This document shows, piece by piece, positions 28,683 through 30,164 of a stretch of DNA of 64,000 nt. This DNA is from Bacillus rhizoplanae (lineage in GTDB: Bacteria; Bacillota; Bacilli; Bacillales; Bacillaceae_G), in NCBI RefSeq assembly GCF_917563915.1, contig NZ_CAKJTI010000001.1:186001-250000 (forward strand), in the 5' to 3' direction. The notes beneath the pieces were generated by a model. The model did no database searches. It was not told the origin of the DNA and saw only the letters and a program-made list of their open reading frames with translations. The position numbers were made by a program, and so were the translations under genes. Each line of letters begins with the position of its first letter. Position 1 is the stretch's first letter.

Positions 28683-28773
28683 CCCGCTATTCGCGGGAGG
28701 TAAGACCCCCACCTAAAACAAAAAAGATAGGTGGGGGTCTTAGCTGGCATGAACCCGGTTAGTTGAACTTTAT
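28678..28773 (-). repeat. Head-less bcr1-like repeat, third of three in tandem
   Basis: TTTATCCCGCTATTCGCGGG tail and the CCCCCACCT/AGGTGGGGG arm are intact, but sequence stops after GGTTAGTTGAA and goes straight to CTTTAT; the head hairpin is gone. The TTTAT (28769-28773) contains the TTA stop of tmcAL. The three copies fill the 28452-28769 gap. Confidence 0.88.
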
Positions 28774-30011
28774 AAAAATACATGTTGCGTTTCGTCATAT
28801 CGAATCGGATGCTGCGTTATATCTCGCTTTATCATTTCACCGCAAAGGGGCTCTTGTAAAATAGAGAAATAAACAGCGCTTGCTTTTCGATCTATATCTA
28901 GAAGGGGATGCCGTAACGTTTTTGTATGAGAAAGCAAAGGGAGAGTTATTTGCTTTTTAATACTTGATATATATGTTTGTCCTTTCTGGGACATGCCGAG
29001 TAAACGTATATATTGTGCGTGCTGTTCTATGTGAGTTTTTTGCATTTCTTCTTTCGTTGTGTTTGTTAAAATATGCGTGCAAATACGCTGTAGCCGTGTC
29101 CATGTGTAACGTTTTGTTTTTAATACTTCCATAAATCTCATGAATGAGGTCGCTTCCCGAATAGAAGATAAAATCCGATTCTCCAATCCTTCCTCTACTT
29201 CATATATATGTTGTAATTGAGATGGTGACATTGTCAGAAGTTTATATTTTAGTAAGTGAAAATAATTCTCCCAGTTATGTAATAGGTGATAGGAATGTTT
29301 GTATTGCTCCAAAAGTAGCTTTGTTATATTTGGAACAAATGGAGCAATTGCTGAAAAAGTTTTCTGTTCATGAAATAATTGTTTGCGAATGCTCGTTGCA
29401 CTGGCAATTCGTTCATCTTGAAATGTTTCATCATGATAATGTGAAGCAAAACGCTTAATTGTACTTGCTTTTATTGAACTTTTCTGCTCAATAATTGCTT
29501 CTGTGTAATGCAGTCCTAAAATATTATTTGGCTCTGAGACATCAATAGTAGCCATGTTTTTTTGTAAGGATGCAAATGCCTCAGAAGTGGCTTTTGCATA
29601 ACTCATTCCGGTTTTGGTATATTGTTGTACAAGATGATTAAATAAATTCTGCTCAGTCTGGCGTATAGTAATTGTATTGTAGAAATGTTCAATATTACCA
29701 TTTTCGCTTCCAAAGCAAATCTCAGAGACGCGAAGAGCATCTAATATTGAAATAGCACCGTTGGCAAATGTTTCAGCTTTTTGCGTTGCAAAGGCATAGG
29801 GAAGTTCGACGACAATATCTATTCCATTTGCTAATGCCATTTGTGTTCGTGCCCATTTTGAAACTAGTGCCGGCTCTCCTCGCTGTAAAAAGGGCCCGCT
29901 CATAACAGCGATGATTATATCGGCATTTGTTAACTTTTTGGTTTGTTGCACATGATAAGCATGACCGTTGTGAAACGGATTATATTCAACAATAATGCCG
30001 CTAGCTTTTAT
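28770..30011 (-). CDS. tmcAL: tRNA(Met) cytidine acetate ligase TmcAL (YlbM), probable AUA start
   Basis: The 413-residue protein matches YlbM/TmcAL: NPFHNGH (the HxGH nucleotidyl-transfer motif, residues 11-17), VMSGPFLQRGEPALVSKWART, VVELPYA, SATSIRKQLF and a helical C-terminal half. TmcAL activates acetate with ATP to acetylate C34 of elongator tRNA-Met. The first ordinary start, GTG at 29951, would delete the HxGH motif. Upstream the frame is open to a TAA at about 30065 with no ATG, GTG or TTG. AAAGGAGAG lies eight bases before an ATA (30009-30011), which falls exactly where B. subtilis YlbM has Met1, as I recall that sequence. ATT codons two positions further up are alternatives. The stop codon is inside a repeat terminus. 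Confidence 0.88.
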   Translation of the reverse strand: MKASGIIVEYNPFHNGHAYHVQQTKKLTNADIIIAVMSGPFLQRGEPALVSKWARTQMALANGIDIVVELPYAFATQKAETFANGAISILDALRVSEICFGSENGNIEHFYNTITIRQTEQNLFNHLVQQYTKTGMSYAKATSEAFASLQKNMATIDVSEPNNILGLHYTEAIIEQKSSIKASTIKRFASHYHDETFQDERIASATSIRKQLFHEQKTFSAIAPFVPNITKLLLEQYKHSYHLLHNWENYFHLLKYKLLTMSPSQLQHIYEVEEGLENRILSSIREATSFMRFMEVLKTKRYTWTRLQRICTHILTNTTKEEMQKTHIEQHAQYIRLLGMSQKGQTYISSIKKQITLPLLSHTKTLRHPLLDIDRKASAVYFSILQEPLCGEMIKRDITQHPIRYDETQHVFL

Positions 30012-30164
30012 AATAATCTCTCCTTTCAGTGTAGCATCTTTTCCTAAAACATGATAATCTATATATTATTTCCTATAATGACTCCATTATAGTGTAAAGA
30101 AAAAATATTGACAAATATACAATGGCTAGCTATAATTTTGTTTGTTGCCTTGAGGTGATATGAT

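What the first reader, a model, noticed from the sequence alone, without database searches (positions are those of the whole stretch)
28770..30065. tmcAL (ylbM) seems to start at an AUA codon
Seen: the HxGH motif NPFHNGH of this nucleotidyl-transfer enzyme is encoded upstream of the first ATG/GTG/TTG (GTG at 29951). The frame stays open to a TAA near 30065 and that stretch has no ATG, GTG or TTG. AAAGGAGAG stands eight bases before an ATA at 30009-30011, which is where the B. subtilis protein has its methionine (MKA... against ATA-K-A). Two ATT codons precede it. Known: AUA and AUU starts are rare and restricted by IF3, as for infC. Inference: TmcAL, which modifies a tRNA for methionine, may be kept low or tied to initiation-factor levels by its start codon. 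Automatic annotation will call a truncated protein without its active site.
Basis: partly seen in the sequence, partly recalled or inferred. Interest (0 to 1): 0.85.

Follow-up and report, generated by a model that had tools for sequence, protein, structure and literature searches.

The report
A tRNA-modifying enzyme gene starting at AUA
In this Bacillus-type genome the gene for the enzyme that marks the methionine tRNA appears to begin at the very rare start signal AUA instead of AUG, so that simple gene calling would cut off the enzyme's active site; relatives show a fixed start position and further odd starts of the same gene in one bacterial family.

Summary
tmcAL (28770-30011, minus strand, 413 codons) has no in-frame ATG, GTG or TTG before the active-site motif NPFHNGH. 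An ATA (30009-30011) stands where relatives start: in 201 distinct tmcAL 5' ends the codon seven places before VEYNP is ATG 149, TTG 28, GTG 14, CTG 7 or ATA 3. A strong Shine-Dalgarno (SD) site has normal spacing to ATA; GTG 29951 has none. L126, 70% identical in protein, keeps SD and ATA, whereas the second ATT has changed; between ATA and GTG it differs by 6 silent and 1 replacement codons.

New here: all 10 non-canonical starts lie in, or group with, one family (ATA in window, L126 and probably G005; CTG in 7 genomes), while coaD and rsmD of its 19 genomes start canonically. tmcAL and ylbN-rpmF also have back-to-back promoter-like sites sharing a -35 element, in 50 of 114 loci.

AUA most likely keeps TmcAL low: AUA/AUU starts gave about 10% of AUG in S. 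aureus reporters (PMC13009471). IF3 dependence is plausible, untested. It is a new member of a known kind.

The parts
28770..30011 (-). tmcAL (ylbM) coding sequence as proposed, 413 codons plus stop, from ATA
   Evidence: translation; NF010191 505.6 bits over profile positions 2-391 of 392; Pfam PF05636 with the longer frame; ATA aligns with the Met of PDB chain 5y0n_A
30009..30011 (-). ATA start codon
   Evidence: seven codons before VEYNPFHNGH, where 198 of 200 other distinct homologues have ATG/TTG/GTG/CTG and two have ATA
30018..30026 (-). Shine-Dalgarno AAAGGAGAG (pairing GAAAGGAG, 30020-30027)
   Evidence: -10.0 kcal/mol, spacing 7 to ATA, 4 and 1 to the two ATT codons; identical in L126, same register in L004/L085 with TTG start
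29961..29981 (-). NPFHNGH, the HxGH nucleotidyl-transfer motif lost by the GTG reading
29949..29951 (-). GTG that a mechanical ORF list takes as start; no Shine-Dalgarno
30086..30114 (-). tmcAL promoter-like site TTGTCA-17-TATAAT
   Evidence: 11 of 12 consensus matches (the region as a whole has 8 such sites against 6.9 in shuffles); kept in L081-L086
30108..30136 (+). ylbN-rpmF promoter-like site TTGACA-17-TATAAT, its -35 overlapping that of tmcAL (TTGTCAA 30108-30114)
   Evidence: 12 of 12; overlap in 50 of 114 loci against 8 of 2280 shuffles
30165..30665 (+). ylbN (YceD family), divergent neighbour, ATG start
   Evidence: Pfam PF02620

Best explanation
tmcAL is translated from AUA at 30009-30011 by the initiator tRNA, directed there by a strong, well-spaced Shine-Dalgarno site. 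The weak codon keeps initiation, and so the amount of this tRNA(Met) C34-acetylating enzyme, at a fraction of what AUG would give. A second brake may lie upstream: the promoter shares its -35 element with the perfect-consensus promoter of ylbN-rpmF, so that at most one polymerase can sit on the pair. Shown by sequence: position, SD, conservation in L126, purifying selection upstream of GTG, promoter-site geometry. Inferred: low yield, discrimination by IF3, promoter activity and competition.
For: Start position invariant in 201 distinct 5' ends, only NTG or ATA; six more, first dropped for a motif variant or cut, also have canonical codons there. SD -10.0 kcal/mol at spacing 7, 3 of 8065 internal codons as strong; GTG 29951 none. 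L126: SD, first ATT and ATA kept, second ATT is ACC; 6 silent and 1 replacement codon differences in the 19 codons between ATA and GTG, NG86 dN 0.022, dS 0.95. SD stronger where the start is ATA or CTG (means -11.6, -11.3) than ATG (-8.0), TTG (-8.5) or GTG (-6.8). Controls in the 19 family genomes: coaD 17 ATG and 2 GTG, rsmD 19 ATG; rpmF and ylbN 17 matches each among 20 family loci including the window, all ATG; infC ATT 19 of 19. The Met of PDB 5y0n_A aligns with the ATA codon. AUA/AUU starts gave about 10% of AUG in S. aureus.
Against: No ribosome or peptide data. Only one other sequence of this close lineage could be obtained (L126). G005's ATA has in-frame ATG codons upstream (positions -21 and -16), so it is weaker support. 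The SD comparison rests on related species (7 CTG of one clade, 3 ATA). Outside the family one control varies too: ylbN gave 51 ATG and 46 TTG, plus CAG and CAT once each (probably off-register matches), over all loci scanned. Low expression and its purpose are unmeasured. The CTG clade lacks the shared -35 pair, so the two brakes are not always together; promoter-like sites as such are not above chance in the region.
Confidence: 0.9

Rival explanations
1. Neutral decay: AUA is the start, but the enzyme is needed in small amounts only, so the codon drifted to weak ones without a regulatory role; the strong SD is simply what kept it working. (Shares the start site with the best explanation; disputes only the purpose.)
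For: ylbM deletion mutants of B. subtilis are viable (PMC4634966, passages); the start codon changes often: at least 10 changes of codon in a 40-row tree, 5 between canonical and ATA/CTG.
Against: ATA is kept across the window-L126 split (70% protein identity) where dS over 19 codons is 0.95; coaD and rsmD of the same 19 genomes do not drift to non-canonical codons. A B. subtilis strain with an internal ylbM deletion grew with 36 min per doubling against 21 min for wild type (same paper, table passage), so the gene is not without value.
Confidence: 0.4
2. Translation starts at one of the ATT codons (30017-30015 or 30014-30012), as in infC.
For: AUU is a known rare start; infC of the family has ATT at its presumed start; the first ATT is kept in L126.
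Against: SD spacing 1 and 4, against 7 for ATA; 13 of the 24 window genes with a site have 6-9 by the same measure. The second ATT is ACC in L126; relatives start at the ATA position.
Confidence: 0.06
3. Translation starts at GTG 29951 and the protein is truncated, without its active site.
For: It is the first canonical start of the frame and the one a mechanical ORF list reports.
Against: No SD; the motif upstream is conserved and silent changes prevail there.
Confidence: 0.02
4. A minimal upstream ORF (ATG CTA CAC TGA, ending at the SD) drives the start by re-initiation or frameshift.
For: The ATG is kept in L126.
Against: Its stop is not: in L126 the frame runs on to a TAA overlapping ATA; only AGGA stands before the ATG.
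Confidence: 0.04

Closest known systems
ccpN AUA start, S. aureus and B. subtilis (PMC13009471, section 10 read)
   Same: AUA start with strong SD, conserved between genera of Bacillota
   Different: ccpN encodes a repressor; its start was mapped by ribosome profiling and measured by reporters. tmcAL encodes a tRNA-modifying enzyme, its start is known here from sequence only and varies (ATG, TTG, GTG, CTG, ATA) between species
infC (IF3) AUU/AUA start
   Same: Non-canonical start with strong SD; ATT at the presumed start in 19 of 19 genomes of the family, with an in-frame ATG four codons further on
   Different: infC is autoregulated in E. coli (discussion passage of PMC13009471); no loop is shown for tmcAL
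pcnB AUU start of E. coli (only the reference title seen, in PMC13009471)
   Same: A weak start limiting an RNA-acting enzyme
   Different: Other codon, enzyme and phylum
TmcAL of PDB 5y0n (UPF0348 protein B4417_3650; its origin in the B. subtilis group is recalled)
   Same: Same enzyme, N-terminus aligned residue for residue
   Different: B. halotolerans and B. velezensis loci L040 and L057 start with ATG

Membership tests
TmcAL, tRNA(Met) cytidine acetate ligase | Full-length match to the curated family | tested here: met
   NF010191 505.6 bits, cut-off 360; PF05636
TmcAL, tRNA(Met) cytidine acetate ligase | HxGH motif at the N-terminus | tested here: met
   NPFHNGH at 29981-29961, only if translation starts upstream of GTG 29951; PF01467 is matched by the long frame and not by the GTG form
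TmcAL, tRNA(Met) cytidine acetate ligase | ac4C34 on elongator tRNA(Met) | not testable with these tools
   enzyme assay needed
Genes with a non-canonical (AUA/AUU/CUG) start | No canonical start upstream of conserved coding sequence | tested here: met
Genes with a non-canonical (AUA/AUU/CUG) start | Strong, well-spaced Shine-Dalgarno site | tested here: met
Genes with a non-canonical (AUA/AUU/CUG) start | Start conserved in relatives | tested here: inconclusive
   L126 yes, L083 probable; next nearest family members have ATG, TTG or GTG; wider close kin not held by the tools
Genes with a non-canonical (AUA/AUU/CUG) start | Initiating ribosomes or N-terminal peptide at that codon | not testable with these tools
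   experiment needed
IF3-discriminated genes (infC type) | Expression rises when IF3 is low | not testable with these tools
   experiment needed

The most novel reading that the evidence does not exclude
The AUA start is a sensor in a feedback loop: the enzyme whose ac4C34 mark stops tRNA(Met) from reading AUA is itself made only when a tRNA with anticodon CAU reads AUA in initiation. If TmcAL also marks part of the initiator tRNA, or if unmodified CAU tRNAs and IF3 levels set AUA initiation, TmcAL would limit its own synthesis.
Probability: 0.06. Interest if true: 0.85.

Novelty: new member of a known kind. Interest (0 to 1): 0.55.

Why it matters
In what I read, few conserved AUA starts are reported in Bacillota (infC and ccpN; PMC13009471). 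This adds an enzyme of decoding fidelity whose own job concerns AUA against AUG, shows a second non-canonical start (CTG) of the same gene in a sister clade, and means that gene callers limited to ATG, GTG and TTG would drop the active site of TmcAL in such genomes. It also points to a widely conserved pair of promoter-like sites that may tie tmcAL to the gene of ribosomal protein L32.

Tried and rejected
Sequencing error: unlikely because of L126. Start at ATT, at CTG 30029-30027 (TCG in L126; only a -2.7 kcal/mol site before it) or at GTG 29951: rejected as above. Leader RNA structure: no more than chance (z 0.63, 150 of 200 shuffles fold at least as well). Loose start codons in these genomes in general: not seen in coaD and rsmD (19 genomes each) or in the rpmF and ylbN matches of the family (17 each of 20 loci); over all loci scanned ylbN is often TTG (51 ATG, 46 TTG, CAG and CAT once each). 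tilS was also fetched, but its start is not at a fixed distance from the motif, so it was not counted; one of 19 loci (L312) gave no motif. Close relatives of the window: whole genomes of its genus appear not to be held; the highest identity among 19 family genomes is 62% and among the listed rows of 397 order genomes 61%; plasmids gave one record, over 4% of the query at rpmF; viral contigs gave one contig. That annotated proteins of the B. cereus group are 393 aa from this GTG is recalled, not looked up; so is the assignment of the window to that group, and the gene labels used for the 25 window ORFs (mechanical ORF starts; one, labelled phoH, gave no SD).

Limits of the survey: loci were best matches to the window's protein, not a random sample: 80 from genome contigs (a capped list), 19 from the family, 26 new ones of the 30 best of the order search, L126, and 120 further regions from the listed rows of that search, which had 396 genomes with a match and did not list all. 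With the window 247 sequences; 6 without the motif pattern were dropped and 201 remained after identical 5' ends were merged. I looked at the six afterwards: four have TTG and one ATG at the start position, and L151 has a valine there directly after a stop, with an HNP variant of the motif; I read its codon as GTG from the three frames printed. Counts of 201 leave them out.

Papers: PMC13009471 passages and sections 9 (part 2) and 10; PMC12514573 one passage; PMC4634966 passages; PMC8779196 two passages, nothing on the start of tmcAL; all others as search listings only. That a non-canonical start of tmcAL is not in print rests on searches of this library alone, read as listings. For the shared -35 only searches were made; nothing on it was seen in their listings.

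Full report
What is there. On the minus strand the tmcAL frame is open from TAA 30066-30068 to TAA 28770-28772. Its first canonical start is GTG 29951-29949, which would remove NPFHNGH, the nucleotidyl-transfer motif, encoded at 29981-29961. ATA is at 30011-30009, preceded by AAAGGAGAG (30026-30018) and ATT ATT. From ATA the protein has 413 residues and matches NF010191 from profile position 2; the Met of PDB 5y0n_A aligns with the ATA codon. The form from GTG still passes the NF010191 cut-off (454.5 against 360 bits), so a pipeline that starts at GTG would not be warned by the family score.

Is ATA the start. Among 247 sequences (246 loci and the window), 241 held the motif pattern and 201 had distinct 5' ends. 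The codon seven places before VEYNP was ATG 149, TTG 28, GTG 14, CTG 7 and ATA 3; no other codon occurred. The six sequences without the pattern have canonical codons there (for L151 read from the printed frames). The start position is therefore fixed and ATA fills it. Ectobacillus antri (L004) has AAAGGAGAG-AATGCT-TTG where the window has AAAGGAGAG-ATTATT-ATA. The SD pairs with -10.0 kcal/mol at spacing 7 to ATA; 6 of 25 other genes tested in the window are stronger, and 13 of the 24 with a site have spacing 6-9; the two ATT codons are at spacing 4 and 1; GTG 29951 has no SD; 3 of 8065 internal codons have so strong a site at spacing 3-9.

The nearest relative found is L126, from a viral-contig record, 70% identical in protein. 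It keeps SD, first ATT and ATA, while the second ATT is ACC. In the 19 codons between ATA and GTG the two differ by 6 silent and 1 replacement codons (dN 0.022, dS 0.95), as expected if this stretch is translated and selected as protein; 19 codons are few.

How widespread. The family of G001 (19 genomes) plus window and L126 show CTG 7, TTG 5, ATG 4, ATA 3, GTG 2, against ATG 145, TTG 23, GTG 12 among 180 other distinct sequences (Fisher p 3e-8, but related species are not independent). A 40-row tree puts the window with L126 (100/98) and G005 with the Ectobacillus-like TTG genomes G001 and G006 (99/93); ATA needs at least two changes and the canonical/non-canonical trait five. G005 has in-frame ATG codons upstream, whereas AAGGAGG stands before its ATA (-14.9 kcal/mol, spacing 8), so its ATA is probable, not certain. 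In six of the seven CTG genomes no in-frame ATG, GTG or TTG precedes the motif; L093 has only a GTG two codons before it.

Controls. In the same 19 genomes coaD, another HxGH enzyme, has 17 ATG and 2 GTG and rsmD 19 ATG. Among 20 family loci (window included) rpmF and ylbN gave 17 matches each, all ATG; over all loci scanned rpmF is ATG in 119 of 119 matches, but ylbN is ATG 51, TTG 46, CAG 1 and CAT 1, so weak starts are not peculiar to tmcAL outside the family; non-canonical ones, the two odd ylbN matches apart, were seen only in tmcAL and infC. infC as positive control: ATT after TGGAGGTG in 19 of 19. Sequences with ATA or CTG have stronger SD sites than those with ATG, as expected if SD compensates the codon; this rests on few lineages.

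How it works. The initiator tRNA reads AUA with a mismatch at the third base, helped by the SD. In S. aureus, AUA or AUU starts gave about 10% of the AUG reporter in poor medium, up to 30% for ccpN in rich medium (PMC13009471). I therefore expect low TmcAL levels. IF3 discriminates against such codons (established knowledge; also stated in the discussion passage), so TmcAL may follow IF3 activity; this is inference. TmcAL's product keeps elongator tRNA(Met) off AUA (PMC12514573 passage), which makes the choice of AUA striking; no causal link is shown.

Second layer. The tmcAL site TTGTCA-17-TATAAT and the ylbN-rpmF site TTGACA-17-TATAAT are back to back with -35 hexamers overlapping in TTGTCAA, 30108-30114; they are the two best of 8 promoter-like sites in the region, where shuffles give 6.9. 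The overlap recurs in 50 of 114 distinct loci with 250 bases upstream, against 8 of 2280 base shuffles; 62 loci have none, among them the CTG clade and L126. Two polymerases cannot occupy overlapping -35 elements, so tmcAL should compete with ylbN-rpmF; inferred.

Known or new. Non-canonical starts with strong SD are a known kind. A non-canonical start for tmcAL was not seen in the papers searched. I file it as a new member of a known kind; its recurrence in one gene and the AUA coincidence lift its interest.

Noticed in passing
window 30086-30136: Divergent promoter-like sites of tmcAL and ylbN-rpmF share a -35 element (TTGTCAA); the same in 50 of 114 loci, which suggests old, selected promoter competition between a tRNA-modification gene and the gene of ribosomal protein L32.
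   Followed up: partly
L126 1-1480: An element with a phage integrase (PF00589) and an HNH protein (PF13392) ends directly in the tmcAL promoter; the window and L126 share near-identical sequence only from TTTTTTCTTTACACTATAATG on, so the -35 seems replaced. No match to the integrase in the phage collection.
   Followed up: partly
   Followed up: partly
window 28701-28742: Long inverted repeat TAAGACCCCCACCTA...TAGGTGGGGGTCTTA between the convergent ylbL-type gene and tmcAL, probably a two-way terminator (seen in the sequence; not in the scan, whose loop limit it exceeds).
   Followed up: no
window 28613-28700: Repeat-like stretch (gcgggataaagcgaaacttccatcag and a diverged second copy) after that inverted repeat, seen by eye.
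   Followed up: no
window 30026-30037: Minimal upstream ORF ATG CTA CAC TGA (minus strand) ending at the SD; in L126 its stop is lost and the frame ends at a TAA overlapping the ATA start.
   Followed up: partly
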